Source: Solirubrobacteraceae bacterium (GTDB taxonomy: Bacteria; Actinomycetota; Thermoleophilia; Solirubrobacterales; Solirubrobacteraceae). From it: 45,362 bases of DNA. The stretch's first letter is position 1; each line of letters begins with the position of its first letter. A program made the translations under genes and the position numbers. Location: contig JADGPL010000024.1 in the NCBI GenBank assembly GCA_017882455.1, forward strand, positions 1-45,362. The letters are read 5' to 3'. Shown here one piece after another: positions 26,758 through 45,362 of the stretch. Under the pieces are notes generated by a model. The model made no database searches, was not told the DNA's origin, and saw only the letters and a list, made by a program, of their open reading frames with translations.

Positions 26758-28587
26758 TCAGCGGTCGGGGCGGGGCCTCGGGCCGAGCCTTGGCATACTG
26801 GTGGAGCACGGAACCTCACCCCCGATGATCCGTGCATTCGCGGGGGCGTAGCTCAGTCGGTTAGAGCGCTGCCCTGTCACGGCAGAGGTCGCGGGTTCGA
26901 GTCCCGTCGCTCCCGCCATACGACCTATGTACGAACCCCGGCCCCGAATTTCGGGGTCGCGGTCGTCTTGGAGGCTTCCGGTCTTATTCCCAGGCGTCCT
27001 GGGCTTCTGGCTGGTTTTGGGGCGTTCGTTGGTCTCGCGCAGCTCTTGGATGAGTTGCTTGATGGTTTCGTACAGCGGCGTGAGCTCTGCCTGGACGTTG
27101 TCGGGGTCTGAGACGACGATGGCGAGGAACACGGCTTGGTTGACGAGCCGCCGAGCACTCGCTGGCAGTGCCTCGTAGATGATGTTCTCGTTCAGGATCG
27201 CAAGCGCGTCATCGAGTGCTGCCATGACGTCCTCGACCTCGCGTTTGGCGGCGTCCGCCCATTGCTGTGCCTTGGCGCGCTCTGTTTCGATGCGTGCCTG
27301 CTCGGCCTTCAAGACCTCCTCGGAGACGCCGCCTTTGTAGTAGAGCTGCACGAGCTTTTGTTGCTCGCCGGTGAGGTCGTGGAGCCTGCGGGTGTGGCGG
27401 GCTGACTCGCGGCGGGCGATCTCGCCCTTGGCCTGCACATAGGAGTGGAGCGCCTCGCGGACTATGGTTTGCTCGTCGTCTTTGTAGGTCTCGCGCTTGT
27501 AGCGGCGCACGATGGCGCGTTCGGTGCGCTCCACCGGGAAGTAGGGCGCCGCACACTGTTCCTCGCGTTGCACGCGGCTGAGGCAGGAAAAATATTCGTA
27601 CTGCCCGCCGCATTTGCCTCGGTGGCGCCCGTAGCCGAGGCGCTTGCCGCAGACGCAAAAGATCGTGCCCTTCAAGTAGTGGTGGTGTTTGTGGGAGCGG
27701 TCGCCGCTGATGCGGTGGCTATCGAGCACCTTCTGCACCTGATCGAACGTGGCTCGGTCGATCAGGGCCTCGTGGCGCCCCTCGCCCTTGACGCCGTTGT
27801 GGGTGACGATCCCCGTGTAGTAGTCGTCACGCAGCATCCGGTGGACCATGCTGCGCGTCATCGGTTTGCTTGGCCGCTTGTAGCTGCCGCGCGTGCGCAG
27901 TCCGGCGCTCTCGAGAACATTGGTAATCGTTGTGATGGTGTGGTCGCCGGTGGCGGCGAGATCGAAGGCCAGTTGGACATGCACGGCGCGATCATCATCA
28001 ACCGCGATAGCTGCCACCTCACGGCCACGCACGTTTTCACGGACGTTCAGGTAGCCGATGCGAGCGACGCCGCTGGTGCCGCCGTCGAGGAACTTGCGTT
28101 CGAGGCCGACCTTGACCTTCTGTCCATCGTCGCGCGAGCGGAAGGCGTTGACCCCTGCCATGATCGCGAACAGCAGGAGCCCTTGTGGGCTGTCATCGAC
28201 CGGCTCGCGGGTGGAGGTCAGCTTCGCGCCGTAGCTCTTGACCTGAGCCAGCAGCCAGAAGGCGTCGGACTCCTCGCGAGCAACCCGTGAAAGGTCGTAG
28301 AAGATGACATAGGTGGGGCTCACCTCGCCAAGCTCAGAGAGCATCTGCTGGAGCGCCTGGCGGCGGGTGTTGGTCGCCGTGCGGCCCGGCTCGATGTACT
28401 CGCGGACGATACGCGCGCCCAGCGAGGTGGCGTAGCGTTCACACGCCTCTCGCTGCGCCTCAATCGAGTACCCCTCCGGGTTATGGCCGGTGAGCTGTCC
28501 GGTACTTGATACCCGCAGATAGATCACCGCCGTTATGTCTGACTCGGGGGCGGGGGCGTTAGTTGGTCTTATTAGGGTTTGTGTCAT
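26758..28587 (-). CDS. large serine recombinase (integrase)
   Basis: Encodes 609 residues. ATG 28587 is preceded by AAAGGAGGG (28594-28602), which sets the start. Resolvase-type catalytic domain at about residues 18-165 with AVIYLRVSSTGQ (catalytic Ser27, Arg25) and FYDLSRVAREESDAF. The recombinase DNA-binding domain is at about 180-290, and a zinc-ribbon is at about 315-355 (FCVCGKRLGYG...KCGGQYEYFSC). A coiled-coil region at about 395-470 is typical of large serine integrases. The last about 55 residues (from MAGATGLEPATSAV) are the antisense translation of tRNA-Asp and flanking chromosome. It catalyses integration and, with a directionality factor, excision. Confidence 0.93.
   Translation of the reverse strand: MTQTLIRPTNAPAPESDITAVIYLRVSSTGQLTGHNPEGYSIEAQREACERYATSLGARIVREYIEPGRTATNTRRQALQQMLSELGEVSPTYVIFYDLSRVAREESDAFWLLAQVKSYGAKLTSTREPVDDSPQGLLLFAIMAGVNAFRSRDDGQKVKVGLERKFLDGGTSGVARIGYLNVRENVRGREVAAIAVDDDRAVHVQLAFDLAATGDHTITTITNVLESAGLRTRGSYKRPSKPMTRSMVHRMLRDDYYTGIVTHNGVKGEGRHEALIDRATFDQVQKVLDSHRISGDRSHKHHHYLKGTIFCVCGKRLGYGRHRGKCGGQYEYFSCLSRVQREEQCAAPYFPVERTERAIVRRYKRETYKDDEQTIVREALHSYVQAKGEIARRESARHTRRLHDLTGEQQKLVQLYYKGGVSEEVLKAEQARIETERAKAQQWADAAKREVEDVMAALDDALAILNENIIYEALPASARRLVNQAVFLAIVVSDPDNVQAELTPLYETIKQLIQELRETNERPKTSQKPRTPGNKTGSLQDDRDPEIRGRGSYIGRMAGATGLEPATSAVTGQRSNRLSYAPANARIIGGEVPCSTSMPRLGPRPRPDR
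26842..26918 (+). tRNA. tRNA-Asp (anticodon GTC), integration site of the element
   Basis: Acceptor GGGGGCG pairs with CGCTCCC (one G-U), T arm CGGG-TTCGAGT-CCCG, anticodon loop CTGTCAC giving GTC. Discriminator G at 26915; CCA is encoded at 26916-26918, unlike the two other tRNAs here. The serine recombinase gene of the adjoining element runs antisense through the whole tRNA. Confidence 0.96.
26842..26960. other. probable left attachment junction of the mobile element
   Basis: Chromosomal genes and GC content lie to the left of tRNA-Asp; the recombinase and transfer genes begin directly to its right. The crossover is probably in the 3' half of the tRNA or within the next few dozen bases. 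A stem-loop (CCCCGAA-T-TTCGGGG, 26942-26956) sits beside it. The exact core cannot be set without the empty site. Confidence 0.5.
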
Positions 28588-28713: not shown

Positions 28714-29100
28714 TCACTTCAGCGCCTCCAGGCGCTCAGTGATGGTCTTCTTGCGCTCGGCCGCGCTGGCCTTGAGGGCTTTAGCTTCGGCCGCTGCCTC
28801 CGTGGCGCGATTCTCGGCCGCCTCGACCTCCCGGTCGATTGAGCTAATCGCTCGTTCAAGCGCTGCGCGGGCGTCCGCCAGTGCGTCATCCGGTGTTGTC
28901 TCACGACGACGGGTCCGTGACGGTTTGGTGCCGTCGCCACCTTCGATCTTCTTCTTGTGAGAGTAATAACTTCCTCTCACCGAATCGTAAGGCCTGCCCG
29001 CCTCCTCGGCGATCTGCTTAAAGGCGTCCGCCTTCTCGGTGCCGGCGGCGATCATCGCCTCGACCCGGTCGTAAATCTCCTGTGCCTTCGTGACTGCCAT
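28714..29100 (-). CDS. small HTH/coiled-coil protein of the element
   Basis: Encodes 128 residues from ATG 29100 (GGAGA upstream). The first half, YDRVEAMIAAGTEKADAFKQIAEEAGRPYDSVRGSYYSHKKK, looks like a helix-turn-helix DNA-binding domain (A..QIAEE.GR...SVR..YY). The second half is a long charged helix (about residues 68-128) likely to form a coiled coil. It lies between the integrase and the degenerate resolvase-like gene. It could be a regulator or an excision factor; neither is shown. Confidence 0.7.
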   Translation of the reverse strand: MAVTKAQEIYDRVEAMIAAGTEKADAFKQIAEEAGRPYDSVRGSYYSHKKKIEGGDGTKPSRTRRRETTPDDALADARAALERAISSIDREVEAAENRATEAAAEAKALKASAAERKKTITERLEALK

Positions 29101-29273
29101 GAAACGTCTCCTTCGGATTGAATGGCCATGTCGGCGGGCAGAAAGACCGTGGTCCTTCCGCTCGCCGTGGGGCCATCCACGAGCCGCCGGGGGATGCCGA
29201 CGGCGAGCATCACAGCTGCCTGCAACGCTCACCGCGGCCCCCCGGCCGGACTCGCCTGGACCGTCACGAGAGC

Positions 29274-29648
29274 TCAGTCGTCCTCGTAGGCGGGCATCGG
29301 AATCGTGCCCGCGTGACCAAGATGCCAGGCCACCTCAAAGGCGTCCTCATCGAAGTCGGCCAGTAGATCCAGTGACCACACGATCAGATAGTCAAGTCGC
29401 TGCTGCTGAGCAGCCTCCAACGCCTGATACAGCCCCGGCCGCAAAGACCCATACTTGCGAGTGTCCACGAACTCGCCGAGCACCTCGACTCGTAGCAATC
29501 CCGCTGCAGAGCGGCAGAGCCTACGCTGCCGGGCGATCGTCGGTTCGCTCACTCCGTTCTTTGCGTCTGGTTCGCACAGGTAGATGGCTGCTCGCCAGAC
29601 CCGCGGCCCCTGATCGCGCGTGTCAATGTTTTGTCGTTTGAGATACAT
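29274..29648 (-). CDS. catalytically dead resolvase-fold protein
   Basis: Encodes 124 residues from ATG 29648 with AAGGAGGT upstream. It matches the resolvase N-terminal domain over its length: RAAIYLCEPDAKNGVSEPTIARQRRLC ... LGEFVDTRKYGSLRPGLYQALEAAQQQRLDYLIVWSLDLLADFDEDAF (partly quoted). At the positions where the element's integrase has YLRVS, this protein has YLCEP, so the catalytic Ser and Arg are gone. LDRLAR is changed to LDLLAD, removing two more active-site arginines. It has no DNA-binding C-terminal domain. Perhaps it pairs with the integrase as a modulator. Confidence 0.75.
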   Translation of the reverse strand: MYLKRQNIDTRDQGPRVWRAAIYLCEPDAKNGVSEPTIARQRRLCRSAAGLLRVEVLGEFVDTRKYGSLRPGLYQALEAAQQQRLDYLIVWSLDLLADFDEDAFEVAWHLGHAGTIPMPAYEDD

Positions 29649-29714: not shown

Positions 29715-30737
29715 TCATGGCAGTACCGCCCGCTGTGCCGCAGACGCGGCCCAGTGTGTTAGCCGAGCGCAAGCGATATCTATGTACTCGCCCTCGCGCT
29801 CGATGCCCAAGAACAGCCGGTCCTCCAACACCGCCGCGATCCCGGTCGTGCCGCTGCCGGCGAAGGGATCGAGCACCACGCCGCCCACGGGCGTGACCAG
29901 TTTCACCAGCCAGCGCATCATCGTGATCGGCTTCACGGTGCGGTGAGTGTTGCGCCGCAGCCGCGCCGGGTGATGGTGGCCGTTATAGAGTTTCACCGAC
30001 TGGGCCGGTAGCGGCTCGCATCCGGCCTCGCGCTCCTGCTTGGATGCCTTGGCGCAGAAGAACAGGCGGCTCGGGCGACGATCGGGCCGCGCGGCATCAA
30101 TCAAGGCCGCTGGACACTCAGATGTGCAGCGAGCCTTGGTGCAGCCGGAGGCGTGCGAGAGCGTGAGGTGCGCGGGCCAGTAGCCGTCCACACGGGCGGC
30201 CTCGGTGTTCATGGCGCCTGTGCCCCAAGCCTGCAGGTTTCGTGTGGTTGCCCCCACCATCGGCGCTCGCGCGAGCAGAATCGGCTCGTAGGCCGGCTTC
30301 AACGTGGTGGCCAGCCCGCCGGGCAACCGCCGGGATTTCGGCAAGCCCTGGGCGTAGAGCCACAGCAGCTGATCACGCACTTCAAGTCCTGCGTCCTCAA
30401 CGCCCGAGACCAGCCGGTGAAACGTCCGAGTCGCGCCGAACGCGAGCAGGTGCCCGCCGGGCTTCAACACGCGCCGGGCTTCGGCCGCCCACACGGCCGT
30501 CCAACGCTCGAACGCCTCACCAGCACTCAGGCGATCTCCACCGGAGCCAGCCACCTGACGGATGTCGGCTCCGTCCCAGGCTTCACCGGCGAAGTCGATG
30601 CCATAGGGAGGGTCGGTGACGATCGCGTCGACCGAGTTGTCGGGGAGCTTGGCAAGGGTCAGCAGCGCTTCGCCCTCGATGAGCCCCCAGGCGTGGGTGT
30701 CGTCTCCGTAGATGGCGACCTTCGCGGTGGTGCTCAT
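29715..30737 (-). CDS. DNA methyltransferase, beta-type motif order
   Basis: Encodes 340 residues. ATG 30737 overlaps the upstream stop as ATGA. The catalytic motif IV TDPPYGIDF is near the N-terminus (Asp42) and the SAM-binding motif DPFAGSGTTGIAA near the C-terminus (about 290-302). This order marks the beta class of N4-cytosine or N6-adenine enzymes. DPPY is common in N6-adenine methyltransferases, so that is more likely. No restriction endonuclease is adjacent. It is the last gene of the transfer operon and could mark element DNA or help it avoid host restriction. Confidence 0.9.
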   Translation of the reverse strand: MSTTAKVAIYGDDTHAWGLIEGEALLTLAKLPDNSVDAIVTDPPYGIDFAGEAWDGADIRQVAGSGGDRLSAGEAFERWTAVWAAEARRVLKPGGHLLAFGATRTFHRLVSGVEDAGLEVRDQLLWLYAQGLPKSRRLPGGLATTLKPAYEPILLARAPMVGATTRNLQAWGTGAMNTEAARVDGYWPAHLTLSHASGCTKARCTSECPAALIDAARPDRRPSRLFFCAKASKQEREAGCEPLPAQSVKLYNGHHHPARLRRNTHRTVKPITMMRWLVKLVTPVGGVVLDPFAGSGTTGIAAVLEDRLFLGIEREGEYIDIACARLTHWAASAAQRAVLP

Positions 30738-31645
30738 GAACGGGCCTCCGTGGCGAGCAGCTGGGTGGCGTCCTCGAACTGGCAGACGGTGAACAGCCGC
30801 TGGGTTGCGCTTGCCTGACGAGCGAGCACTTCGCCTATCTGTTGCTCTCGGCGTTGGTCGCCAACCGTCCACAGGACGCGGGGGTAGACGCCGTGCTCGT
30901 GCTGCTCGCGCCCGGAGCGGTAGTGGTCGGTGTAGAGGGCAAGCTTGCGGGCGATGGTGCGCCCGGACTCCGAGCCGAGGTCCACCTCGACCATCCAGCG
31001 GTCTTCCTGGGCGCCGGCCCCGATACGGATGAACAGGTCGGGCTTCAACACCTTCTGTGCGCCCATTGCCGCTGGGTAGCTGCGCCAGCAGGCCGGCTCT
31101 TGTTGGACCTCGATCAGCTCCAGCTCGCCATCACAGTCGGCTTCGTTCAACCGCAGCGCCAGCTCGGTGGTGGCGAGGGTATGCGCGAGGTGCAGCGTGC
31201 CGGGGATCTCCACGCGCGGCCCGTGGATACCGCGGGCCGCGAGCAGGCGGACTCCGGCGCGGCCGGTGTAGTAAACGAGTCCTGAGCTGCCGCGCATCCC
31301 CGCGATATTGCGTGGCAGGGTCTGGAGCACCCGCGAGTCCGTGAGACGCTTCAAGGCGCGGCGTCCGGCTCGGGCACGAGCGGCCTGCGCGTTGTCGGTC
31401 CGCCAGAACGCCCGGATGAGTTGCTGACCGCTCGCTAGGCGTCCGTCGTGGACGAAGCGGAGGAGCTGCCAGTCTGCCTCGGACATGGTCTGGCTGAGCT
31501 GGTAGAGACGGCTGGCGGTGAGGTAGGGGAGGGACTGCGGGGGAGCAGAACCATTCGCCGTCGAAAATGCGCCAGAAGTCCCACCAACACGGGGATTTGT
31601 GGCCACCCGACTCGCGGGGTCTGGTCGCAGCGCTGGACGCCTCAT
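30734..31645 (-). CDS. replication-relaxation family protein
   Basis: Encodes 303 residues. ATG 31645 overlaps the coupling ATPase stop (ATGA), and its own stop overlaps the methyltransferase start. The core LTASRLYQLSQTMSEADWQLLRFVHDGRLASGQQLIRAFW ... RALKRLTDSRVLQTLPR ... GLVYYTGRAGVRLL is a winged-helix pattern followed by a nuclease-like half (LIEVQQEPACWRSY ... LKPDLFIRIGAG..EDRWMVEVDLGSESGRTI). This is the arrangement of the actinobacterial 'replication-relaxation' family found beside VirD4-like genes. It may act as initiator or relaxase-like factor; the activity is not proven for the family. Confidence 0.8.
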   Translation of the reverse strand: MRRPALRPDPASRVATNPRVGGTSGAFSTANGSAPPQSLPYLTASRLYQLSQTMSEADWQLLRFVHDGRLASGQQLIRAFWRTDNAQAARARAGRRALKRLTDSRVLQTLPRNIAGMRGSSGLVYYTGRAGVRLLAARGIHGPRVEIPGTLHLAHTLATTELALRLNEADCDGELELIEVQQEPACWRSYPAAMGAQKVLKPDLFIRIGAGAQEDRWMVEVDLGSESGRTIARKLALYTDHYRSGREQHEHGVYPRVLWTVGDQRREQQIGEVLARQASATQRLFTVCQFEDATQLLATEARS

Positions 31646-33831
31646 GAGGCCCTCCCGGTGCGTCCCAGAGCAGGCGTGTCTTCGCTCGTGATCGGCGTTG
31701 GCGTGGCATTGGCTGGTGCTGTCTCGACCGGTGTGGTGCCGTAGAGCGCTGCGGAGCGGTCACGGATAGCGCCGGCTTGCCCGGTGGGCGCCGAGAGCGC
31801 CACAGTGCGCCCGGTGACGGTCGAGCTGCCACTCGCGCCAGCGATACGCGCCGCTACGTGGAAGCGGCTGAGGGCCATCACGTCGCCCTCGGTGAGCCCT
31901 GGAAGCTGGCGCGCAATACGCGCCGCCTCGTCGGCTGAGGCAAAGGTGAGGAAGTTCTGGGTGTTGCCGAGCAGTGCTCCACGGGTTGGCTCGGGGATGC
32001 GCCCGAGGGTCTGTACCGCCACTGTCAGTCCCGCACCGAGGCCACGGGCGCGCTCGGCCAGTAGCTCGAACGAGAACGGCACCCCGCCGGTCAAGCTCGC
32101 CAGCTCGTCCAGGTAGACCGAGATGAAGGGGCGCCTCTCGGGCGCCAGCGCCACCTGCCGCTCGATCGCGCTCCACACCAAGTGCGTGACGGCCGCGCCG
32201 ATGATCGACGCGCCGGCCTCTCCGAGCTGGCCGGGGGCGAGAGAAACCAACAAGAACTTGTGCTCGGAAAACAGCCTGGCGATGTCGAGCTTTGGCTCGG
32301 GGTTCGCTAGCACGGCGCGCACGCGGGGCCGAGATAGGAGCGTCATCAGCCGGGCCATCGGGGCCTGCACATGCTCGACTTTGCTGCCAGCAGGTAGCGC
32401 GAGATACTGCTCCCATGCGCCGACGAGGAAGGGGTCGCTGAGGCGCGCGATCATCTGCTGCAAGAACGGCTCGCTCGAAAACAGCCGGCCGATATCGCCG
32501 AGCGTCGCGCCGGGAACCTCGCTCAAGCTGCGGATCGCCAGGCGGAGATACTGCTCAGAGCGCACGCCCCACGCGTCCGAAAAAATTGCCTTCACCGCCC
32601 CCGTCAGCACGTCTGCGCGCAGGTCGGCGTCGCCACCGGAAAGCACCGCCACCCCCGGCGTCGGACGGGCATCATCGCCGGGGTCGAGCACCACTACCCG
32701 CTCGGCGTGCTCGGCCGGTACACGCTCAATGACCGTCTGGATGAGATCGGCCTTCGGATCGACACAGACGCCCGCATGTCCGGCGGCGATGTCATCCAGA
32801 ATGCCGCGCGCGAGGAGCTCGCTCTTGCCCGATCCCGAAGCGCCCACCACAAGCGTATGCAGCCGTGCGGCCCGTGGGTCCAGCGCCACCCATCGCTCAC
32901 CACCGAGATCACGGCCCATGAACAGCCGTCGTCCCTCCTGTGGTAGCCGCGCGGTTGGTGGCACCAACAGCTCACGGGCGGCACCGACCTCTACGCCGGG
33001 AATAGCCACATCAGCTCCGAGCGGCCAGCCGGTGAGCCCAAGCAGCTCCGGCGTTGACAGCCACCCTGACGTGCGAGTCGTGCGGGGCTGAGCGGCCAGG
33101 CTGCGGCTGCCACGCCCACGGGTAACCCGGATGCCACCCACGAGTGCCCTACGGCTGCGCAGCACACTCTCGATGTGCGCGGCCAGCTCCCGCGCCCGGC
33201 TGACCTTGGAGGAGCGGATCAAGACCACGCCCGCTGTAGTGAAACCCGGCGCGCTCACCTTGTGCCGCCATGCGCGGTCGATCTCTCGCTCGTGGGCGTC
33301 GGGGTGCTGCATCTCTCGGCGAGGACGCGCCCTCCCTGGTTGTAGGGCGAGCCGCAGGGCAACGACTTCGCCTGTGCGGAGGTTTGCTATTCCAGAAAGC
33401 AGTGTGCGCGAGACAGCCTCGGCGTTCTCCGCCGATAGCACGCTCGGTGTCGGCACGAAGAGCTTCAACGCGAGCGTCGTCGCTTCCGTCGGCGATGGTG
33501 ACGCTTCTGCTACCCGCAGGCTCGGTATGACGCCCGTCAAGATCGCTTCGGTGGAGCCGCGCACTGACTCGGGCACCCACAAAAAATGCGCGATTGACCC
33601 CTCTCTCGCCACGATCTCCACAACGATCTCGGTCGTGTGTGGCAAGCCCGACAACCCATCAAGAGCGGCGAGCGCTTGCTGTGGTTCAAGACCGATGGGG
33701 AAGCACAGGGAAAGCCTAACCCGCTCCCGCCGCATCGCCTCAGTACGCAGGTGCTCGTGCGTACCTATAGCGGCAAGGAGTGTGCTCCCACCCCCGAGGG
33801 CCACCAGCGCGGGAGTCAAATCCGCGTTCAC
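31642..33831 (-). CDS. VirD4/TraG-like coupling ATPase
   Basis: Encodes 729 residues. ATG 33831 overlaps the stop of the preceding 61-residue gene. Walker A VVGASGSGKSELLARG is at about residue 330, and Walker B-like FISVYLDELASLTGG at about 570 with the TraG/TraD C-terminal (TraM-recognition) region around it. The N-terminal 300 residues are of the type seen in actinobacterial 'type IV secretory system conjugative DNA transfer' proteins, with one weak hydrophobic segment near the start. It would pump DNA or deliver it to a channel at the membrane. No VirB4-like second ATPase is encoded nearby. Confidence 0.88.
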   Translation of the reverse strand: MNADLTPALVALGGGSTLLAAIGTHEHLRTEAMRRERVRLSLCFPIGLEPQQALAALDGLSGLPHTTEIVVEIVAREGSIAHFLWVPESVRGSTEAILTGVIPSLRVAEASPSPTEATTLALKLFVPTPSVLSAENAEAVSRTLLSGIANLRTGEVVALRLALQPGRARPRREMQHPDAHEREIDRAWRHKVSAPGFTTAGVVLIRSSKVSRARELAAHIESVLRSRRALVGGIRVTRGRGSRSLAAQPRTTRTSGWLSTPELLGLTGWPLGADVAIPGVEVGAARELLVPPTARLPQEGRRLFMGRDLGGERWVALDPRAARLHTLVVGASGSGKSELLARGILDDIAAGHAGVCVDPKADLIQTVIERVPAEHAERVVVLDPGDDARPTPGVAVLSGGDADLRADVLTGAVKAIFSDAWGVRSEQYLRLAIRSLSEVPGATLGDIGRLFSSEPFLQQMIARLSDPFLVGAWEQYLALPAGSKVEHVQAPMARLMTLLSRPRVRAVLANPEPKLDIARLFSEHKFLLVSLAPGQLGEAGASIIGAAVTHLVWSAIERQVALAPERRPFISVYLDELASLTGGVPFSFELLAERARGLGAGLTVAVQTLGRIPEPTRGALLGNTQNFLTFASADEAARIARQLPGLTEGDVMALSRFHVAARIAGASGSSTVTGRTVALSAPTGQAGAIRDRSAALYGTTPVETAPANATPTPITSEDTPALGRTGRAS

Positions 33832-34013
33832 CGCTCGTCTCCCTTGCGCTTATCCTTCACGGCCTCGAGCTCGCGGCGCTTCGCCTTCGCTGCGGCTTCA
33901 CGGTCCCGCCGCTGTTGCACAAGGCGCTTTCCCTGCTGGAAATACACATAAGCAAGTAGATCCGTGTCTATCTCGGTCCTTCTAATACCGTTAATCTGAA
34001 TACGACGTGCCAT
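33828..34013 (-). CDS. 61-residue basic protein of the transfer operon
   Basis: MARRIQINGIRRTEIDTDLL... with a C-terminal half rich in Lys, Arg and Glu (RDREAAAKAKRRELEAVKDKRKG), probably one long helix. AAGGAGGT (34025-34032) lies 11 nt before the ATG at 34013. Its stop overlaps the coupling ATPase start (ATGA). The charge suggests DNA or membrane-surface contact. No family recognised. Confidence 0.7.
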   Translation of the reverse strand: MARRIQINGIRRTEIDTDLLAYVYFQQGKRLVQQRRDREAAAKAKRRELEAVKDKRKGDER

Positions 34014-34045
34014 AAAGTAGATGCACCTCCTTCCTCGTTAAGCTG

Positions 34046-34063
34046 TTACATGCTGACCTCCTT
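34046..34063 (-). promoter_or_regulatory. start-stop mini-ORF with a full Shine-Dalgarno
   Basis: AAGGAGGT (34056-34063), CAGC, then ATG directly followed by TAA (34051-34046). It lies in the leader of the 61-residue gene, whose own ribosome binding site is the same octamer. It is a possible ribosome-stalling or spacing element. Confidence 0.4.
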
Positions 34064-34068
34064 GCAGG

Positions 34069-34087
34069 TTTGTTCGCCTTTTGTTCG
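34069..34087. repeat. direct repeat in the transfer operon leader
   Basis: TTTGTTCG at 34069-34076 and again at 34080-34087, an 11-bp period that places both copies on the same face of the helix, between the promoter and the start codon. A possible operator. Confidence 0.4.
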
Positions 34088-34100
34088 GGCAATAACCTCC

Positions 34101-34130
34101 AGTATTGATCGGGAAAACGGAAAGTGTCAA
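34101..34130 (-). promoter_or_regulatory. internal promoter of the transfer operon
   Basis: On the reverse strand, TTGACA (34130-34125), 18 nt, AATACT (34106-34101), about 90 nt before the 61-residue gene. The -35 is a perfect consensus. Confidence 0.55.
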
Positions 34131-34169
34131 CAACTATCTATGCACCAACAGGAGTGAAACCGGCTATGG

Positions 34170-34334
34170 CTAGCGCGTGTAAAACCACAGGACACGCAGC
34201 ACCGCCACCGCCACGGCGGTGACGAGGATCACGGGTACCAGCGCGTCCAAGATGGTGGCGATCCTGGGAGCGACGGCGCCCACCGCCGCCACCCCCAACA
34301 CCACCAGCGTCACCGTCGTGATGAACTTCGTCAT
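34170..34334 (-). CDS. 54-residue membrane protein
   Basis: ATG 34334 overlaps the stop of the upstream 69-residue gene (ATGA). The frame gives MTKFITTVTLVVLGVAAVG, a short loop APRIATILDA, then LVPVILVTAVAVAVLRVLW and FYTR. Two membrane helices are predicted, joined by a tight turn. The size and position are reminiscent of the small pilin or holin-like proteins in DNA transfer systems, but nothing is recognised by sequence. It is the last gene of the upstream half of the operon; a promoter and leader follow. Confidence 0.65.
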   Translation of the reverse strand: MTKFITTVTLVVLGVAAVGAVAPRIATILDALVPVILVTAVAVAVLRVLWFYTR

Positions 34335-34540
34335 TGGATTCCCTTAGCGATCAACATGTTCATCGCCGAGCCAAACAGCTCGTCGGCCGTCGTGACCTCC
34401 AACCGCAAATTGAGGTTGGCGTCTTCGAGCTCGTGGCACTCCCGCTGCACGCGCTCAACCTCTCGGCGGAGGTGTTCGTTTTCGGCGGCAAGATCACGGT
34501 GTTGCCGCCGGGCGAGAACGAACTGCTGGCGCCTATTCAT
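34331..34540 (-). CDS. 69-residue coiled-coil protein
   Basis: MNRRQQFVLARRQHRDLAAE followed by heptad-like NEHLRREVERVQRECHELED and ANLNLRLEV. Mostly one amphipathic helix, with no membrane segment. It overlaps both neighbours by ATGA. Probably a partner of the adjacent membrane proteins. Confidence 0.65.
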   Translation of the reverse strand: MNRRQQFVLARRQHRDLAAENEHLRREVERVQRECHELEDANLNLRLEVTTADELFGSAMNMLIAKGIQ

Positions 34541-34821
34541 CGCTCGCCCCTCCCGTTTGCTATGGCGCGCAGCTCCCGCTCAGAGCGCTGGCGGATCGCC
34601 ACGATCTCCCTGATAGCGGCGGTGCGCTCGATGGCGACACGCCTAAGCTCTTTCTGCGCGGCGGAGTCGAGATGCCGCCGCTGCCCGAGCTCTATAGCCT
34701 TGCGGCCTGTGAACATGAGCCCGCTGTACAGGAGGATCACGGGCAGGATCAGCGTGAGGCCAACGAGCGCCATGATGCTGAGCACGAAGCCCACCACTGG
34801 GTCGGTGTCGGTGCCGCTCAT
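34537..34821 (-). CDS. 94-residue membrane protein with charged tail
   Basis: ATG 34821 overlaps the stop of the upstream gene (ATGA). An N-terminal hydrophobic region PVVGFVLSIMALVGLTLILP and VILLYSGLMF (residues about 8-37) gives one long or two short membrane spans. A basic helical tail follows (GQRRHLDSAAQKELRRVAIE...). I reject a longer upstream reading because it is arginine-rich and overlaps the preceding gene in another frame. No family recognised. Confidence 0.7.
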   Translation of the reverse strand: MSGTDTDPVVGFVLSIMALVGLTLILPVILLYSGLMFTGRKAIELGQRRHLDSAAQKELRRVAIERTAAIREIVAIRQRSERELRAIANGRGER

Positions 34822-35156
34822 GAGCCAAGCCGCCGGTTTAGGGCGTCGATACGGCCGCCGATGGCGCGTATGTCTCGCTCGGCTACATAGTCGATAGCGG
34901 CGATGCCGTCGGGGTGCTGCTCGATGAGAAACCGCCGGTACTCGACCAGGCTGGCGACGGATGACATGGCGACGTGCCCGGTCGCCTCCAACGCGGCGAT
35001 CTTCGCCTGCTCGACTACTTCGGCGGCTTGAACGTGGGCCAGCTCCAAGCTGGTGCTCGCCTGCAGGCCGCGGAGGTTCTTGACCAGGTTTCGATCCTCG
35101 CGGGTTTGGATGGCGCCGTCGAACATGCGGACGGCGGGGAGATGGGGGTTCGTCAC
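34818..35156 (-). CDS. 112-residue helical protein, first gene of the transfer operon
   Basis: GTG 35156 with AAAAGGAG 4 nt upstream. The sequence MTNPHLPAVRMFDGAIQTREDRNLVKNLRGLQ... VEQAKIAALEATGHVAMSSVASLVEYRRFL looks all-helical and soluble. It opens the reverse-strand operon, facing the gene at 35225 across a 68-nt promoter region. Function unknown. Confidence 0.7.
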   Translation of the reverse strand: MTNPHLPAVRMFDGAIQTREDRNLVKNLRGLQASTSLELAHVQAAEVVEQAKIAALEATGHVAMSSVASLVEYRRFLIEQHPDGIAAIDYVAERDIRAIGGRIDALNRRLGS

Positions 35157-35224: not shown

Positions 35225-36328
35225 GTGCCAAGAAAAAGCCAAACCGAAACTGCCAAAAAAATGACAAAGACCACAGTCGGCCATGCCGAGGAACTGCGCC
35301 GCGAGCTGGGCTATCTTGCCCGACGCGACGTCCACGACTTCGATCCCAGCGCCACTCCGCGTCTCTGCGAGGCGGTTCTACGGCTAAGCGCGAAGCCGGA
35401 GCCTTGTACCCGCCAAGATGTGCGCCGCGCTATCGAGGCGGGAATCCGAGTCGCAGCAGGCGGGAACGACGACGTGGTGACGCTCGGCGAATGGGTGTTC
35501 GGCATACCCGCGGAGGCTCACCGAGACAAACTGACCGGCCGTCAGGTAACGGTTGGCGGGACGATCGGTCGAAGCATGAGTTCGATCCGCCAGACAGACC
35601 AACCGAAACTCATAGACAAGCTTGTCCGCTTCCTCTTGGAGCAACCCGCCGGGCTTTTCTGTGAGCCAGATCGCACGCCAGCCCGGTTGCGCGATAGCGA
35701 ATCGGACTACAAGGTTCGGCGCGTAGCCTTGACTGTTGACCTCAACCCGATGAACCAGCAATTTAGCCGAGCGACGATCGAGGTTGAAATCGAGGCGCTA
35801 CAGCCGGTCGAGTTCTTCCGGCACTCGACTACGCTGGCGATGTTTGACGGGATAACGGTCCGCTCCGGAGACGGCCGAGTGAAACTACTGCCGGTTGGGC
35901 ACCCCATGCGGCCTACCCGTGATAAGGGCGGCTTCAGGCTCGACCCGCCATGCTCGCCGGGAGAGCGGTACGTCGTCCGCTTGCGGCACCGCAATATTTC
36001 AACGGCTGATTTTCTTGGGCCGTTGCAGCGCGGTGAGGTAGTTGGGCCGAACGTCGAGACGATCGAGCTTCGACTTAGAACACCGGCGCGCTGGGACTAT
36101 CACCCGCTGTGGTATGAGAGCGATGGATTCTCCATCTTGGACCAGGGAAAGTTGCCGCAAGCCCACATTGGGGCGAGAGTGCAGGAGTTTGCTTGCGTTA
36201 TCTCAGACCCGAGTCCGGGTCGGATGTATGGCATACACCTAGATCCACCATCCGTCGAACGATTTGGCGAATACTGCCACGAGTATGCTTCTCGGCGATC
36301 AAAACGGCACAGCTTGACAACCGCCTAG
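35225..36328 (+). CDS. 367-residue protein divergent from the transfer operon, unknown
   Basis: GTG 35225 is used; ATG 35261 removes 12 Lys/Thr-rich residues. Neither has a clear ribosome binding site. The N-terminal third (about 20-140) is helical with WVFGIPAEAHRDKLTGRQ, which may be an HTH-like domain. The rest is beta-rich and contains many aromatic residues (FFRHSTTLAMFDGI, RWDYHPLWYESDGFS). No catalytic motif recognised. GC content is clearly below the chromosomal genes, as for other element genes. Position suggests a regulator of transfer or a cargo gene. Confidence 0.65.
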   Translation: MPRKSQTETAKKMTKTTVGHAEELRRELGYLARRDVHDFDPSATPRLCEAVLRLSAKPEPCTRQDVRRAIEAGIRVAAGGNDDVVTLGEWVFGIPAEAHRDKLTGRQVTVGGTIGRSMSSIRQTDQPKLIDKLVRFLLEQPAGLFCEPDRTPARLRDSESDYKVRRVALTVDLNPMNQQFSRATIEVEIEALQPVEFFRHSTTLAMFDGITVRSGDGRVKLLPVGHPMRPTRDKGGFRLDPPCSPGERYVVRLRHRNISTADFLGPLQRGEVVGPNVETIELRLRTPARWDYHPLWYESDGFSILDQGKLPQAHIGARVQEFACVISDPSPGRMYGIHLDPPSVERFGEYCHEYASRRSKRHSLTTA

Positions 36329-36365
36329 TTTTCGTGGTTTATAGAGGGAGTGACTAGGAGCGCTT

Positions 36366-36425
36366 GACGGTTGCAGTCCTGACTCCGTCTGCTTGCACAG
36401 CAGGCGAGGTCTTTCTGCAACCGTC
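36366..36425. other. 60-nt nested stem-loop upstream of the gene at 36440
   Basis: Outer arms GACGGTTGCAG (36366-36376) and CTGCAACCGTC (36415-36425) are exact reverse complements. Inside is a second hairpin, CTGCT (36389-36393) and AGCAG (36399-36403). The structure ends 1 nt before the AAAGGAG of the next gene. It may be a structured leader, a terminator, or a protein-binding site such as an origin of transfer. Confidence 0.5.
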
Positions 36426-36439
36426 GAAAGGAGCCTCCT

Positions 36440-36808
36440 GTGCAGTCGCCTCTGATGTGGGCCGCTAGGCGGTCAGAATTGATTAGTAACGCGTATCAGG
36501 ATTCGGCCAATTGGATCGAGCGCAAGGGCCGCGAAAGCCCCCGGGCTCAACGCATCCTTATCTCAGTCCGTGAACGCCTCGCCGGATTTACGTCGGAGCG
36601 CTCGTGGAACGAGCTCTACTACTGCGCACAAGCCGTCGCCCGTTACAAGCACGGGCACGCGGCTCTGAACGAGACAGTCGTAAACCCGAAAGGAATCTTT
36701 GCTCGGGGTCACGCCGAAGAACTACTCGCGGCCTTCTCCGACAAGGAGTGGGCAGAGATCGAAAACCAAGCTGACCGCTTCTATCTCGTGCATCCCGACG
36801 GGTACTGA
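36440..36808 (+). CDS. 122-residue protein, unknown
   Basis: GTG 36440 follows AAAGGAG (36427-36433) by 6 nt. The sequence MQSPLMWAARRSELISNAYQ ... RILISVRERLAGFTSERSWNELYYCAQAVARYKHGHAAL is helical and soluble. No family recognised. It ends before a strong bidirectional hairpin. Confidence 0.65.
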   Translation: MQSPLMWAARRSELISNAYQDSANWIERKGRESPRAQRILISVRERLAGFTSERSWNELYYCAQAVARYKHGHAALNETVVNPKGIFARGHAEELLAAFSDKEWAEIENQADRFYLVHPDGY

Positions 36809-36824
36809 CGCCCTGGCGTCCTAA

Positions 36825-36854
36825 CCCCGATGAGCCTTCATTGGCTCATCGGGG
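36825..36854. terminator. bidirectional terminator
   Basis: CCCCGATGAGCC (36825-36836), loop TTCATT, GGCTCATCGGGG (36843-36854). A perfect 12-bp stem with a 6-nt loop between convergent genes. Confidence 0.8.
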
Positions 36855-36881
36855 GCACCCCCCGCAATCATCTCCTCAAAT

Positions 36882-37466
36882 CTAGTTCAGCTGAAGCGTC
36901 TTGTTCAGCGTGCATCTGACGCTCGCGGTATCGGTGCTTTCGGGTACTTCCCACTCGGCGTCATACAGGTGGGGTTCTTCGTAGCCCATCCCGATATGCG
37001 AGCCGGATGAGTCGGGTGCGTTTGAGCCTTCGTCCCAGCCGTCCACGATTGGGACGTTTTTGCGTGCGCCCCCTGGGTTCCATGAGCCGCTGTTTGGCCC
37101 TTTGCATTCGACTTGCACCTCGAAATCAGATGGCGTGGGCGGCGTCCGGTCGCTTGTCTGACTCGCCATGCTCACCCGCACCATCATCTTGTCGAATCCC
37201 GGTGGGGAGCTGCCGGCGCCGGGGAATCCTTCCGGGCTCTTGGTGATGCTGACAAGCTGCGCGGTGAACGGCCAGGGGCCGTCCTTCCAATGCACCACCG
37301 GATACGTTGAGTTCGTGGGTGCTGGCGGTGTGGTCTGTGTCGTCGTGCTGCCGGCCTGCGACGTAGCTCTCGCGTTCGGACTCGGGATCGTCACGGTCTG
37401 CTGGCTGGAGCCGCATCCAGACAGTGCAGCCAAAGTCGCGACCAGAGCAAAGCCTTTCGTTCTCAT
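36882..37466 (-). CDS. lipoprotein
   Basis: Encodes 194 residues. ATG 37466 overlaps the upstream gene's stop (ATGA). The signal sequence MRTKGFALVATLAALSGCGSS contains a lipobox LSGC with Cys18. A Thr/Ser/Pro-rich linker (about 24-52) leads to a beta-rich domain with two cysteines (VQVECKGP and VRCTLNK). It is anchored on the outer face of the membrane. No known family recognised. It is co-transcribed with the secreted protein upstream. Confidence 0.75.
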   Translation of the reverse strand: MRTKGFALVATLAALSGCGSSQQTVTIPSPNARATSQAGSTTTQTTPPAPTNSTYPVVHWKDGPWPFTAQLVSITKSPEGFPGAGSSPPGFDKMMVRVSMASQTSDRTPPTPSDFEVQVECKGPNSGSWNPGGARKNVPIVDGWDEGSNAPDSSGSHIGMGYEEPHLYDAEWEVPESTDTASVRCTLNKTLQLN

Positions 37467-37996
37467 CCGGCTATTCGCGCCGCCGTCAGGACCTCGTGGA
37501 CAACTACCCGGCCGTCGCGTTCTCCACAGATCGGCCCGCAGCGATCCTTGATCGCGACGACGACGTTGCGGCCTCCCCGTGGGTCGTGGGAGTCCAGAAG
37601 CGTTTCGAGCGTCACGGGCTTTTCGAGCACCTTCGTGCCTTCGACCAAGCGGGAGTATTCATCCGTCACCCAGACATGGAACGCGCACATATGCGTCCCG
37701 TTCAGGGCGCGCCATGTGTATGACCGCCGGAGTGGTGTGGTGTGTTCGTTGTTGCCGCGTGGTAGTTCGTGGTGCTTCCAGTAGAAGTAGGAGGTGTCGC
37801 CGAGCAGTCGTTCCCACGGGCTTGTTCGTGGCTGGCCCCAATACGCTTCGTATGGGTGGGCGCAGCTTGAGCCCTTGAGCGTCGACGCCTGGGCGTGGCT
37901 CGTCCGAGCGGCCTGGGCGGAGAGAGCGCCAAGACCGACCGAAGCGGCTACCGCACCAGCGGCAAGTAGACGTCCCCAACGGCGGTGTCTTCCCAT
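37463..37996 (-). CDS. secreted protein, partner of the lipoprotein
   Basis: Encodes 177 residues from ATG 37996 with AAAGGAC upstream. A longer frame reaches 38257 but crosses the XRE promoter and gene start. A signal peptide (MGRHRRWGRLLAAGAVAASVGLGALSAQA) is clear. The mature part has four cysteines (SCAHPYEAYWG, MCAFHVWV, RCGPICGER). No family recognised. It forms a two-gene operon with the lipoprotein and is divergent from the XRE regulator. Confidence 0.72.
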   Translation of the reverse strand: MGRHRRWGRLLAAGAVAASVGLGALSAQAARTSHAQASTLKGSSCAHPYEAYWGQPRTSPWERLLGDTSYFYWKHHELPRGNNEHTTPLRRSYTWRALNGTHMCAFHVWVTDEYSRLVEGTKVLEKPVTLETLLDSHDPRGGRNVVVAIKDRCGPICGERDGRVVVHEVLTAARIAG

Positions 37997-38049
37997 TTGT
38001 CGTCCTTTCCCAGCATCGACGGTGTCCAAAGGCTGGGATTGTGTCATAG

Positions 38050-38076
38050 CACGGCATCCCGTGTTTTGCACAACAC
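38050..38076. promoter_or_regulatory. two overlapping inverted repeats between XRE gene and secreted-protein operon
   Basis: CACGG-CATC-CCGTG (38050-38063) and GTGTT-TTGCAC-AACAC (38061-38076). They lie in the divergent promoter region and are likely operators for the XRE protein. Confidence 0.5.
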
Positions 38077-38114
38077 CACAAGGAAGGTAAGCAGGGGACC
38101 GGTAGACCAAGGGG

Positions 38115-38468
38115 ATGCCTGCTCGACGCCCCGCCTCCCAAGCCCAACGTGCCGTGGCCTTCGGCGAACGCATCCGCTCCCTTCGCCGCGTAAAGAAGCT
38201 CAAGCAGCGAGAGGTCGCAGAGCTTCTCCCGATGAGTGCCGGCCACCTCTCGCGCATCGAGACCGGCGACTACGGCCCGCCCAGCGATGAGGTCATCGAG
38301 CGGCTGGCCGAGGTGCTCGACGCCGACCGGCTCGAGCTGATGCGTATCGCTGGCCGCGAGGCAGGAAGTGGAGCGTTCGAGCGGCGGGTCTTGAGCGAGC
38401 TCGCCGCGATCCGAAGCGGCGTGGAGCGCATCGAGGCATCGGTGGCCGGTCGCCGTAAGCCCCGCTGA
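38115..38468 (+). CDS. XRE-type helix-turn-helix regulator
   Basis: Encodes 117 residues from ATG 38115, with AAGGGG directly upstream. The Cro/C1-type HTH spans about residues 17-72: FGERIRSLRRVKKLKQREVAELLPMSAGHLSRIETGDYGPPSDEVIERLAEVLD (partly quoted as evidence of QREVAELLPMS and HLSRIETG). A short helical tail (VERIEASVAGRRKPR) may dimerise. It is probably autoregulated and controls the divergent secreted-protein operon. Confidence 0.9.
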   Translation: MPARRPASQAQRAVAFGERIRSLRRVKKLKQREVAELLPMSAGHLSRIETGDYGPPSDEVIERLAEVLDADRLELMRIAGREAGSGAFERRVLSELAAIRSGVERIEASVAGRRKPR

Positions 38469-38491
38469 TTCGGGCGGGCTGCCGTCCCGGC

Positions 38492-38528
38492 CCACAGGTT
38501 GACCACGCCGGCGCCTCGCCCCTACGGT
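38492..38528 (+). promoter_or_regulatory. promoter of winged-helix gene 1
   Basis: CCACAGGTTGAC (38492-38503) contains TTGACC as -35. After 18 nt comes TACGGT (38523-38528). The same layout recurs before gene 2. Confidence 0.45.
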
Positions 38529-38608
38529 GGACGGCCCGTCGAACCGTCCCGGTCCTGGGCCTTTGCGCCTATGCCTGAGACACGCACCTGGAGGTGGCCT
38601 GCGCCCTC

Positions 38609-38863
38609 ATGTCAACCGAGATCCCCGTCGAATATGCCGACGTCCCAGAGAACTTCCAGCGCCAGGTGCTGGAGCTGGTGATTTGGGCCGGTGAGAAGTG
38701 GTACACGATCCTTCAGCTTGCCGAACACGTCGGCGACCTGATTGACGCTCTCGACGCTATGCAAGCCCTCTCTGATGCCGGGCTCATCCACCGCCAGGGC
38801 AACTACGTTTTTCCAACCCGCGCCGCCATCCACCTCCACGACCTGTTCGGCGCGACTTGGTAG
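38609..38863 (+). CDS. winged-helix-like protein 1
   Basis: Encodes 84 residues from ATG 38609; GTG 38594 in frame would add 5. The region WYTILQLAEHVGDLIDALDAMQALSDAGLIHRQGNYVFPTRAAI fits a winged helix (helix-turn-helix followed by a beta wing). It is paralogous to the gene at 39013: both end AG[LI]IHR...[VI]F.[TS]RAA. Function unknown; probably DNA binding. Confidence 0.7.
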   Translation: MSTEIPVEYADVPENFQRQVLELVIWAGEKWYTILQLAEHVGDLIDALDAMQALSDAGLIHRQGNYVFPTRAAIHLHDLFGATW

Positions 38864-38898
38864 CCCCACGCCGAGCGAATCCCTCTCGCGTAGCAGCG

Positions 38899-38935
38899 CC
38901 ACAGGTTGACGACTCTCGGCCCTCAGCCCTAGCTT
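38899..38935 (+). promoter_or_regulatory. promoter of winged-helix gene 2
   Basis: CCACAGGTTGAC (38899-38910) with TTGACG as -35, 18 nt, TAGCTT (38930-38935). The -35 region is identical to that of gene 1 over 12 bases. Confidence 0.45.
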
Positions 38936-39012
38936 CGGCGGCTTCATACCAAAGCGGCCTCGGCACGGATTGAGCCCGCACCGAGGCCCGGACACGAGAG
39001 GTCGAAACTCCC

Positions 39013-39279
39013 ATGCCCGATGAGCAGCCTATCCCTGACCCCGCCGATCACTACCGTCAGCACGAACTGGAGATCATCTATCTCCTCACCGACCCCGACG
39101 ACAACCAGCCCCTATGGACGCTCGAGGACCTTGCCCGTGAGATGGACGAGCGCGACATCATGCCGTTCGTCCGTCGCCTGCAAGAGGCCGGGATCATCCA
39201 TCGCACCTCAGACGGCCACATCTTCGCCAGCCGCGCAGCCGTCCGCCAGGTCCAGATCGTCGGACACAACGTCTTCTAA
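39013..39279 (+). CDS. winged-helix-like protein 2
   Basis: Encodes 88 residues from ATG 39013. LWTLEDLAREMDERDIMPFVRRLQEAGIIHRTSDGHIFASRAAV aligns with the gene at 38609 over the whole HTH and wing. The two have diverged to about one third identity by eye, so the duplication is not recent at the protein level although the promoters stay alike. Function unknown. Confidence 0.7.
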   Translation: MPDEQPIPDPADHYRQHELEIIYLLTDPDDNQPLWTLEDLAREMDERDIMPFVRRLQEAGIIHRTSDGHIFASRAAVRQVQIVGHNVF

Positions 39280-39362
39280 GCCAATCGGCCCCACCACCAA
39301 CTGAGCCTCAGCCCGGCCGCGTCCCCAGGGTAGCGGCCGGGTCCACAATCGCGCAACCTGTC

Positions 39363-39383
39363 GCGCACCGGCACTTGTGCGAC
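39363..39383. repeat. hairpin repeat copy 1
   Basis: GCGCAC, 6 nt, then TTGTGCGAC; with the preceding TC it folds as TCGCGCA/TGTGCGA. A near copy lies at 44707-44727, and the right half recurs at 42803-42811. Confidence 0.45.
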
Positions 39384-39552
39384 GTGGCTGCCCGTCATGC
39401 CTGTCTCGCCTTACTCGCAAACTCGGCAGTATTCGCGAGCGCTGAGCCACGCCTCCGCCGCTACACGGGATAGGCTCAATTAGGTGGGCCGCAAGGGCGG
39501 ACTTGTCGGGAGAGATGCACATGTCGCATACTTGGGTTAGTTACACGCGAGG

Positions 39553-40287: not shown

Positions 40288-40293
40288 CGCCAT

Positions 40294-45295: not shown

Positions 45296-45362
45296 CCGTC
45301 CGGTCCGGGTCGTAGCTTCGGCTGATCGGGACGGGGGCTTCCCTGGAGCAGATGTGAGGGCA

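What the first reader, a model, noticed from the sequence alone, without database searches (positions are those of the whole stretch)
29715..35156. Compact DNA-transfer operon without VirB4 or a classical relaxase
Seen: eight reverse-strand genes, seven of whose neighbours are joined by ATGA overlaps or short leaders: 112-aa helical, 94-aa membrane, 69-aa coiled coil, 54-aa membrane, 61-aa basic, VirD4/TraG-like ATPase, replication-relaxation protein, DNA methyltransferase. Known: conjugative elements normally also carry a VirB4 ATPase, channel proteins and a relaxase with HUH or MOB motifs. None is visible between the recombinase and 36.8 kb. Inference: the small membrane and coiled-coil proteins may form a minimal channel or docking complex, making this a self-contained transfer system or a mobilizable one of a little-described kind.
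Basis: partly seen in the sequence, partly recalled or inferred. Interest (0 to 1): 0.7.

Follow-up and report, generated by a model that had tools for sequence, protein, structure and literature searches.

The report
Hitch-hiking gene island in tRNA genes
This operon is the transfer kit of a mobile DNA island that sits at tRNA genes; it carries its own DNA-nicking relaxase and docking motor but no export channel, so it most likely travels through other elements' conjugation machines, and the same kit recurs in many actinobacteria.

Summary
The eight genes are real. Six of the seven junctions are 4-bp overlaps; the seventh is a 156-bp gap. No VirB4 or HUH relaxase is visible from the recombinase to the contig end. 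The key inference is wrong, however: the "replication-relaxation" protein is a MOBC-type relaxase (PF13814, 101 bits; winged helix plus PD-(D/E)XK fold; PD and ExD invariant in 36 homologues). The ATPase is a VirD4-class coupling protein. [quoted passage not shown]

The module recurs in 29 loci across Actinomycetota, always without VirB4 in the stretch held. Their VirD4s form one clan (98/98) apart from VirD4s next to VirB4. The integrase ends beside a convergent tRNA gene in 22 of 29 loci. Three relatives with both ends located (18.6, 19.1, 38.9 kb; one end by composition only) hold no channel genes. Four small genes (61, 54, 94, 112 aa) mark this clade. The gap holds a CGAACA-N5-CGAACA repeat found only twice in the 3.3-Mb genome, in the same gap of both elements: an oriT candidate. 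Transfer itself is unshown; VirB4-free self-transfer is unlikely but not excluded.

The parts
26842..26918 (+). tRNA-Asp(gtc), presumed insertion site; left host/element junction at its 3' end (about 26916)
   Evidence: ARAGORN; similarity to the same locus in several relatives ends at window 26915-26919; in the relatives inspected the tRNA lacks the encoded CCA and the downstream DNA differs
26758..28587 (-). large serine integrase; its ORF runs on through the tRNA gene in antisense
   Evidence: Pfam Resolvase, Recombinase and Zn_ribbon_recom matches; found in all but one of the 31 related loci examined
28714..29106 (-). 130-aa HTH-like/coiled-coil protein, conserved module member; possible relaxosome accessory factor (inference)
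   Evidence: 84% identical in the co-resident C7 element although the integrases there share only 33%; in 12 of 15 elements clustered
29274..29648 (-). 124-aa resolvase N-terminal domain only (remnant or short accessory recombinase)
   Evidence: Pfam Resolvase E 2.5e-8
29715..30737 (-). DNA methyltransferase (N6/N4), 340 aa
   Evidence: PF01555 112 bits; type II/orphan MTase profiles; in 10 of 15 elements clustered; replaced by a Dam-family MTase in G194a and by a same-size related gene in G194b
30734..31645 (-). Replic_Relax = MOBC-type relaxase: winged helix + PD-(D/E)XK nuclease domain
   Evidence: PF13814 101 bits vs cut-off 25.3; model pLDDT 84.6; EcoO109I Z 8.6, rmsd 2.9, 107 aligned; PHROG 'replication initiation by nicking' E 1.3e-18; P202, D203, E220, D222 invariant in 36/36
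31642..33831 (-). VirD4-class type IV coupling protein, 729 aa
   Evidence: TrwB Z 30.0, rmsd 3.8, 362 aligned; full-length profile match to a VirD4 that has a separate VirB4-type gene just upstream, E 2.3e-71
33828..34013 (-). b61: small basic protein (net charge +8), family motif RRIxVxGVxxxEIDxxxLAxxxWLxAK
   Evidence: present upstream of VirD4 in 27 of 29 loci, absent in the loci with VirB4
34014..34169 (.). the only long gap in the operon; holds direct repeats CGAACA-N5-CGAACA (34071-34087, minus strand): candidate oriT/relaxase-binding site or operator (inference)
   Evidence: pattern occurs exactly twice in the 3.3-Mb genome, both in this gap of the two elements; also in the gap of the G155 C6 and C10 and G151 elements
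34170..34334 (-). m54: very hydrophobic 54-aa protein (probably two membrane helices), possible membrane partner of VirD4 (inference)
   Evidence: hydropathy; family recovered in most elements of the order
34331..34540 (-). cc69: coiled-coil 69-aa protein, poorly conserved
   Evidence: tblastn recovers it in only two other elements, G000:C7 and G155:C6
34537..34821 (-). m94: N-terminal membrane segment plus charged cytoplasmic helix
   Evidence: hydropathy; homologues in order in most elements, weaker outside the order
34818..35156 (-). h112: helical protein, first gene of the operon
   Evidence: homologues at the same place up to other classes of the phylum, e.g. L132 E 8e-7
35225..45362 (.). 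variable cargo of the element up to the contig end; no transfer gene recognised
   Evidence: Pfam (a few small ORFs not scanned); except the small HTH-type genes (38115, 38594, 39013) not shared between elements

Best explanation
The region is the mobilization and integration module of an integrative mobilizable element inserted at the 3' end of a tRNA-Asp gene. Proposed steps: (1) the serine integrase excises a circle (inferred). (2) The MOBC-type relaxase, perhaps helped by the 130-aa protein and b61, binds direct repeats in the 156-bp gap and nicks a nearby oriT (inferred from family, fold and repeats). (3) The VirD4-class ATPase, with the small membrane proteins m54/m94 perhaps as membrane partners, receives the relaxase-DNA complex and docks on the mating channel of a co-resident conjugative element (inferred from family and from the absence of VirB4). 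(4) In the recipient the strand is closed and the integrase inserts the circle at a tRNA gene; the methyltransferase may shield the DNA from restriction (inferred). Shown here: gene identities, folds, conserved order, absence of channel genes in related elements with both ends located, the tRNA insertion site, and VirD4 relationships that cross host orders.
For: Replic_Relax 101 bits; PF13814 = MobC relaxase and IME_Class_8 = VirD4 + MobC + serine integrase in the same compact order (PMC5357655, PMC5704250); MOBC is a PD-(D/E)XK relaxase and TraX has an N-terminal winged HTH (PMC12857230). Model: MarR-like winged helix at about 45-140 and a PD-(D/E)XK domain; catalytic-type residues invariant in 36 homologues. 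VirD4: TrwB Z 30.0; full-length match to a VirD4 beside a separate VirB4 (E 2.3e-71) but only E about 1e-4 to VirB4s. 29 loci share the module, none with VirB4 in the stretch held; six other loci have VirB4 + VirD4 + Replic_Relax without integrase or b61. IME-like VirD4s are one clan, 98/98. Relatives with both ends located lack T4SS genes: G194a 38.9 kb, G755 19.1 kb between ~130-bp repeats, G194b ~18.6 kb with its right end by composition. tRNA convergent with the integrase in 22/29. A possible helper, TcpE + VirB4 + TrbL + VirD4-like, lies on contig C31 of the same genome.
Against: Transfer, nicking and excision are not shown. The right end of this element is off the contig. In 16 of 30 element-bearing genomes no VirB4 was found at E 1e-10, including single-contig G755, so a helper is often not resident. 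The relaxase has D where the PD-(D/E)XK lysine is expected (ExD); a nearby K234 is kept in 33/36. No direct comparison with TraX or CloDF13 MobC was possible.
Confidence: 0.8

Rival explanations
1. Self-sufficient, VirB4-free transfer: the VirD4-like motor with m54/m94/h112 forms its own conduit, in the manner of the actinomycete TraB/Spd dsDNA system, so no helper is needed.
For: The small membrane and helical genes mark exactly the VirB4-less clade; 16/30 host genomes show no VirB4; TraB with Spd membrane proteins is a precedent for a T4CP working without other T4SS subunits (PMC12857230).
Against: The motor is closest to TrwB/VirB4/HerA (Z 23-30), not to FtsK (17-18) or TcpA (17); it is paired with an ssDNA-type relaxase; the small proteins have no resemblance to known channel parts; 14/30 hosts do carry a VirB4 elsewhere; published VirD4 + MobC elements are read as mobilizable.
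Confidence: 0.1
2. It is a full ICE whose VirB4/pore block lies beyond the contig end, or was lost only in this copy.
For: The right end is off the contig; the genome has VirB4 genes on contigs C31 and C44; actinobacterial systems with VirB4-VirD4-Replic_Relax exist.
Against: Related elements with both ends located (G194a, G194b, G755) have no pore genes; in all 29 loci VirB4 is absent near the module; in full systems VirB4 lies upstream of VirD4, the place taken here by the small genes; the IME-like VirD4s form a separate clan; the closest case, a VirB4-like gene 24 kb from VirD4 in G330, lies past the G+C step.
Confidence: 0.06
3. Replic_Relax here is a plasmid-type replication initiator, and the element is an integrating plasmid or degenerate island that no longer transfers.
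For: Pfam's name for the family; the PHROG annotation 'replication initiation by nicking'.
Against: Strict co-occurrence with a VirD4 coupling protein in 29 loci; intact reading frames with 4-bp overlaps; VirD4 relationships cut across host orders, e.g. G086 groups with G427/G393 and G162 with G311/G385/G249, which points to ongoing transfer.
Confidence: 0.04

Closest known systems
IME_Class_8 of Streptococcus (VirD4 CP + Rel_PF13814/MobC relaxase + serine integrase; PMC5357655, PMC5704250)
   Same: same three functional genes in the same compact order, no mating-pore genes
   Different: different phylum; methyltransferase and 130-aa gene between relaxase and integrase; conserved set of small genes upstream of VirD4; integration at tRNA genes; no direct sequence comparison made
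MOBC1 mobilizable plasmids, prototype CloDF13 (PMC7434980)
   Same: mobilizable element that encodes its own T4CP together with a MOBC relaxase
   Different: replicating plasmid of proteobacteria, no integrase; sequences not compared here
pAD1 TraX, experimentally studied MOBC relaxase (Francia et al. 2013, via PMC12857230)
   Same: N-terminal winged helix and restriction-endonuclease-like catalytic domain; TraX binds direct repeats in oriT
   Different: here ExD replaces the canonical ExK; oriT repeats only inferred
Actinobacterial T4SS with VirB4-VirD4-Replic_Relax, e.g. Embleya sp. NBC_00896 plasmid NZ_CP108778.1
   Same: full-length homologous VirD4 (29% identity) followed by a Replic_Relax gene
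   Different: has PrgI, VirB4 and NlpC/P60 genes; lacks integrase, MTase and the small genes
pIP501 TraJ (T4CP without own TM domain) with small membrane protein TraI (PMC7434980, PMC12857230)
   Same: small protein with two hydrophobic segments encoded near a T4CP with a weak membrane anchor
   Different: pIP501 is conjugative with a full MPF; homology of m54 to TraI not shown
Streptomyces TraB/Spd (AICE) dsDNA transfer (PMC12857230)
   Same: one motor plus small membrane proteins
   Different: motor fold here is VirD4/TrwB-like, paired with a relaxase

Membership tests
MOBC relaxase | matches the MobC/PF13814 profile | tested here: met
   101.2 bits vs curated cut-off 25.3, profile 1-191/191; PF13814 = CONJscan MobC in PMC5357655
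MOBC relaxase | restriction-endonuclease-like PD-(D/E)XK catalytic fold | tested here: met
   AF2 model pLDDT 84.6; EcoO109I Z 8.6 over 107 residues, rmsd 2.9, other PD-(D/E)XK enzymes in the Foldseek list; P-D and E-x-D invariant in 36/36
MOBC relaxase | canonical catalytic lysine at ExK | tested here: inconclusive
   position is D222 in 36/36; K234 in the next helix kept in 33/36
MOBC relaxase | N-terminal winged HTH as in TraX | tested here: met
   MarR-like domain, residues about 45-140, Z up to 9.4; the TraX feature from PMC12857230
MOBC relaxase | site-specific nicking of oriT | not testable with these tools
   needs biochemistry; a candidate repeat site was found
VirD4-class type IV coupling protein | RecA-like motor with all-alpha domain (TrwB fold) | tested here: met
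   TrwB Z 30.0, rmsd 3.8, 362 aligned; profile hit to TrwB E 1.8e-11
VirD4-class type IV coupling protein | distinct from VirB4 | tested here: met
   full-length E 2.3e-71 to a VirD4 that has a separate VirB4; E about 1e-4 to VirB4s. The VirB4 motor fold is nearly as close (Z 28.3), so this rests on sequence
VirD4-class type IV coupling protein | N-terminal transmembrane helices | tested here: inconclusive
   one N-terminal helix 5-35, hydropathy 1.55; varies in relatives
Integrative mobilizable element | own integrase and defined att ends | tested here: inconclusive
   integrase and left junction met; right end off the contig, but both ends seen in relatives G194a and G755
Integrative mobilizable element | relaxase present, no mating-pore genes | tested here: met
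   none found in the held part nor in three relatives with both ends located
Integrative mobilizable element | transferred in trans by a helper | not testable with these tools
   possible resident helper on contig C31
IME_Class_8 (VirD4 + MobC + serine integrase) | order VirD4 - MobC relaxase - small gene - serine integrase | tested here: met
   MTase additionally inserted
IME_Class_8 (VirD4 + MobC + serine integrase) | sequence relationship to the streptococcal elements | not tested
   no streptococcal sequence was fetched
ICE with own T4SS | VirB4 on the element | tested here: not met
   not in the element part of the window or near any of 29 modules; sensitive profile finds VirB4 only elsewhere
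AICE / TraB system | FtsK-type TraB dsDNA translocase | tested here: not met
   FtsK Z 16.7-17.7 versus TrwB Z 30.0

The most novel reading that the evidence does not exclude
An old, widespread actinobacterial clade of elements that transfers without any VirB4: the VirD4-like motor plus the clade-specific small membrane proteins act as a minimal conduit for relaxase-bound DNA, a third mode beside T4SS conjugation and TraB transfer.
Probability: 0.1. Interest if true: 0.88.

Novelty: new variant of a known kind. Interest (0 to 1): 0.5.

Why it matters
MOBC + VirD4 mobilizable elements are described as few: two putative streptococcal IMEs and the CloDF13-type plasmids; a 2017 review lists only one canonical IME for actinobacteria. 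Here a coherent clade spans orders and classes of Actinomycetota, is inserted at many different tRNA genes by serine integrases (tRNA targeting is usually by tyrosine integrases, Islander abstract), and in two members carries anti-phage cargo (Gabija plus a DpnII/MboI-like nuclease; a type I restriction system). Its clade-specific small membrane proteins make a testable case of how a hitch-hiking coupling protein docks on foreign channels, and about half of its hosts lack a detectable VirB4, which makes the helper question sharp.

Tried and rejected
- Close-relative scans of genome contigs and viral contigs with the VirD4 protein gave one distant Patescibacteria hit and none; plasmid tblastn with the relaxase gave none.
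- The first VirB4 scan with AAA_10 suggested that complete genome G194 has none; the more sensitive profile A4 found one at C1:1266046, so that claim was dropped. The second AAA_10 scan used too strict a cut-off and is not relied on.
- Foldseek's top VirB4 (TrwK) hits for the ATPase raised the idea of a VirB4/VirD4 hybrid; profile comparison rejected it.
- Finding the right end of this element through empty sites in relatives failed: no displaced tRNA end and no collinear contig. The G194b right end rests on the G+C/codon step only.
- Stem-loops in the 156-bp gap: none in the window copy, so the oriT proposal rests on the direct repeats.
- In the tree, row B_G000C7b was labelled 'withVirB4' without a check; it is only an outgroup.
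- Family membership of the small proteins: nothing above cut-off in Pfam, NCBIfam or PHROGs.
- A pIP501-style anchor role for m54 is an analogy only.
Full report
What is there. The window is a whole contig (C45, 45362 bp) of a 3.3-Mb draft genome. Bases 1 to about 26.9 kb are host DNA of about 70% G+C; from 27 kb the G+C falls to about 58-68% up to the contig end. The step lies at a tRNA-Asp gene (26842-26918).

Gene check. All eight reverse-strand genes exist. Six of seven junctions are 4-bp overlaps and one is a 156-bp gap between m54 and b61. Downstream of the methyltransferase follow a 124-aa resolvase fragment, a 130-aa HTH-like/coiled-coil gene and a large serine integrase. The window copy of this unit therefore runs from 26758 to 35156.

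The missing relaxase is not missing. The 303-aa protein matches PF13814 Replic_Relax over the whole profile with 101 bits against a cut-off of 25.3. PF13814 is the domain that CONJscan calls MobC, and streptococcal IME_Class_8 is defined by a VirD4 coupling protein, this relaxase and a serine integrase in the same compact order (PMC5357655). MOBC relaxases belong to the PD-(D/E)XK superfamily, and pAD1 TraX has an N-terminal winged HTH (PMC12857230). The AlphaFold2 model (pLDDT 84.6) shows a MarR-like winged helix (about 45-140) and an alpha-beta nuclease domain that matches EcoO109I (Z 8.6, rmsd 2.9, 107 residues) and other PD-(D/E)XK enzymes. E183, P202, D203, E220 and D222 are invariant in 36 homologues, K234 in 33. 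The lysine of ExK is a D, so catalysis should be tested.

The ATPase. Sub-threshold Pfam hits become clear by fold: TrwB Z 30.0 over 362 residues, FtsK and TcpA about 17. The motor of VirB4 is almost as close (Z 28.3) and Foldseek ranks R388 VirB4 first, so I tested sequence profiles: the alignment of 14 relatives matches the Embleya plasmid VirD4 over its full length (E 2.3e-71), while VirB4s match only weakly (E about 1e-4). In the Embleya plasmid a separate VirB4-type ATPase and a PrgI gene lie upstream of the VirD4, and Replic_Relax and NlpC/P60 genes follow it.

A conserved module. tblastn and profile searches found the module in 29 loci: two in this genome, the rest in the same order, other orders of the class and beyond the class. 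The order is b61 - VirD4 - Replic_Relax - (MTase) - (130-aa gene) - serine integrase. None has a VirB4 in the stretch held, mostly about 10 kb on each side. Six other loci (Embleya, G478, G607, G709, G641, G765) have VirB4 - VirD4 - Replic_Relax but neither integrase nor b61. A maximum-likelihood tree puts the 29 VirD4s in one clan (98/98); one outgroup row there was not checked for VirB4. Within the clan the branching crosses host orders (G086 with G427/G393; G162 with G311/G385/G249), as expected for moving elements. Clustering of 283 ORFs from 15 elements shows that almost only the module genes and a few small HTH genes are shared; the rest is private cargo.

Element ends. The integrase 3' end lies within 400 bp of a tRNA gene in 22 of 29 loci with room, always convergent with it; the tRNAs are Asp, Leu, Glu, Val, Ala, Lys, Arg, Ser and Met. 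With roughly 50 tRNA genes in 3 Mb about 1% would be expected (my estimate). In the window, similarity to the same locus in several relatives ends at 26915-26919, and in the relatives inspected the tRNA lacks the CCA that the window copy has. Three relatives have both ends located: G194a, 38.9 kb between near-identical repeats; G755, 19,115 bp between ~130-bp repeats that include the tRNA-Ala 3' end; G194b, about 18.6 kb with the right end from composition only. The ORFs scanned in them include no T4SS gene; two carry defence genes: Gabija plus a DpnII/MboI-like nuclease in G194b, and type I restriction in G755.

Helpers. With a sensitive VirB4 profile, 14 of 30 element-bearing genomes have a VirB4 elsewhere and 16 have none. 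The closest case, G330, lies 24 kb from the VirD4 gene in DNA past the G+C step. The window genome has TcpE, VirB4, TrbL/VirB6 and VirD4-like genes on contig C31 and a second VirB4 on C44.

Small genes. b61 is found in 27 of 29 modules and in none of the loci with VirB4; m54, m94 and h112 families keep their place in most elements of the order and h112 far beyond; cc69 is not conserved. None has a database match above cut-off. T4CPs with weak or no membrane anchor are known to use a small membrane partner (pIP501 TraJ/TraI; PMC7434980, PMC12857230); m54 could do this here (inference).

A candidate cis site. The 156-bp gap holds CGAACA-N5-CGAACA, one helical turn apart. The pattern occurs exactly twice in the 3.3-Mb genome, both times in this gap of its two elements; it is also in the gap of the G155 C6 and C10 and G151 elements, with five hits elsewhere in those two genomes. 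The gap of G155 C7 and of more distant elements lacks it; G194a has a 13-bp inverted repeat there. TraX also binds direct repeats in its oriT. It could equally be an operator.

Verdict. An integrative mobilizable element with a MOBC-type relaxase and its own VirD4, a new actinobacterial variant of a known kind. The absence of VirB4 is real in the relatives examined and probable here. A self-sufficient channel made of the small proteins has no positive support but is not excluded.

Noticed in passing
window 29274-29648 (-): Resolvase N-terminal domain without the rest, between MTase and 130-aa gene; a similar piece lies in G155 C7 (L045:5767-6108). Possibly a remnant of an earlier integrase.
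   Followed up: partly
window 39553-42116 (+): Cargo block of a SAM methyltransferase, a sulfotransferase (PF13469) and an ornithine-cyclodeaminase-family protein (PF02423): perhaps a small-molecule pathway.
   Followed up: partly
L064:14579-18832 (G194b element): Gabija GajA/GajB pair next to a DpnII/MboI-like nuclease as element cargo.
   Followed up: partly
L132:1799-7675 (G755 element): Complete type I restriction-modification system as element cargo.
   Followed up: partly
L012 (G000:C7:97000-111806): Second element of the family in the same genome: its integrase is only 33% identical but its 130-aa protein 84%, suggesting integrase swapping; its VirD4 frame ends early at a TAG.
   Followed up: partly
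L011 (G000:C31:133000-152000): T4SS locus with TcpE, VirB4 (split in two frames), TrbL, VirD4-like, a weak Replic_Relax match and an MTase: possible helper.
   Followed up: partly
window 39013-39279 (+), 38594-38863 (+), 38115-38468 (+): Small, probably regulatory genes shared by several elements (one HTH_31 Cro/C1-type; the 88-aa one without a Pfam family above cut-off), possibly the element's control region.
   Followed up: partly
L044:2352-2368: A second CGAACA-N5-CGAACA repeat near the integrase 3' end of the G151 element.
   Followed up: no
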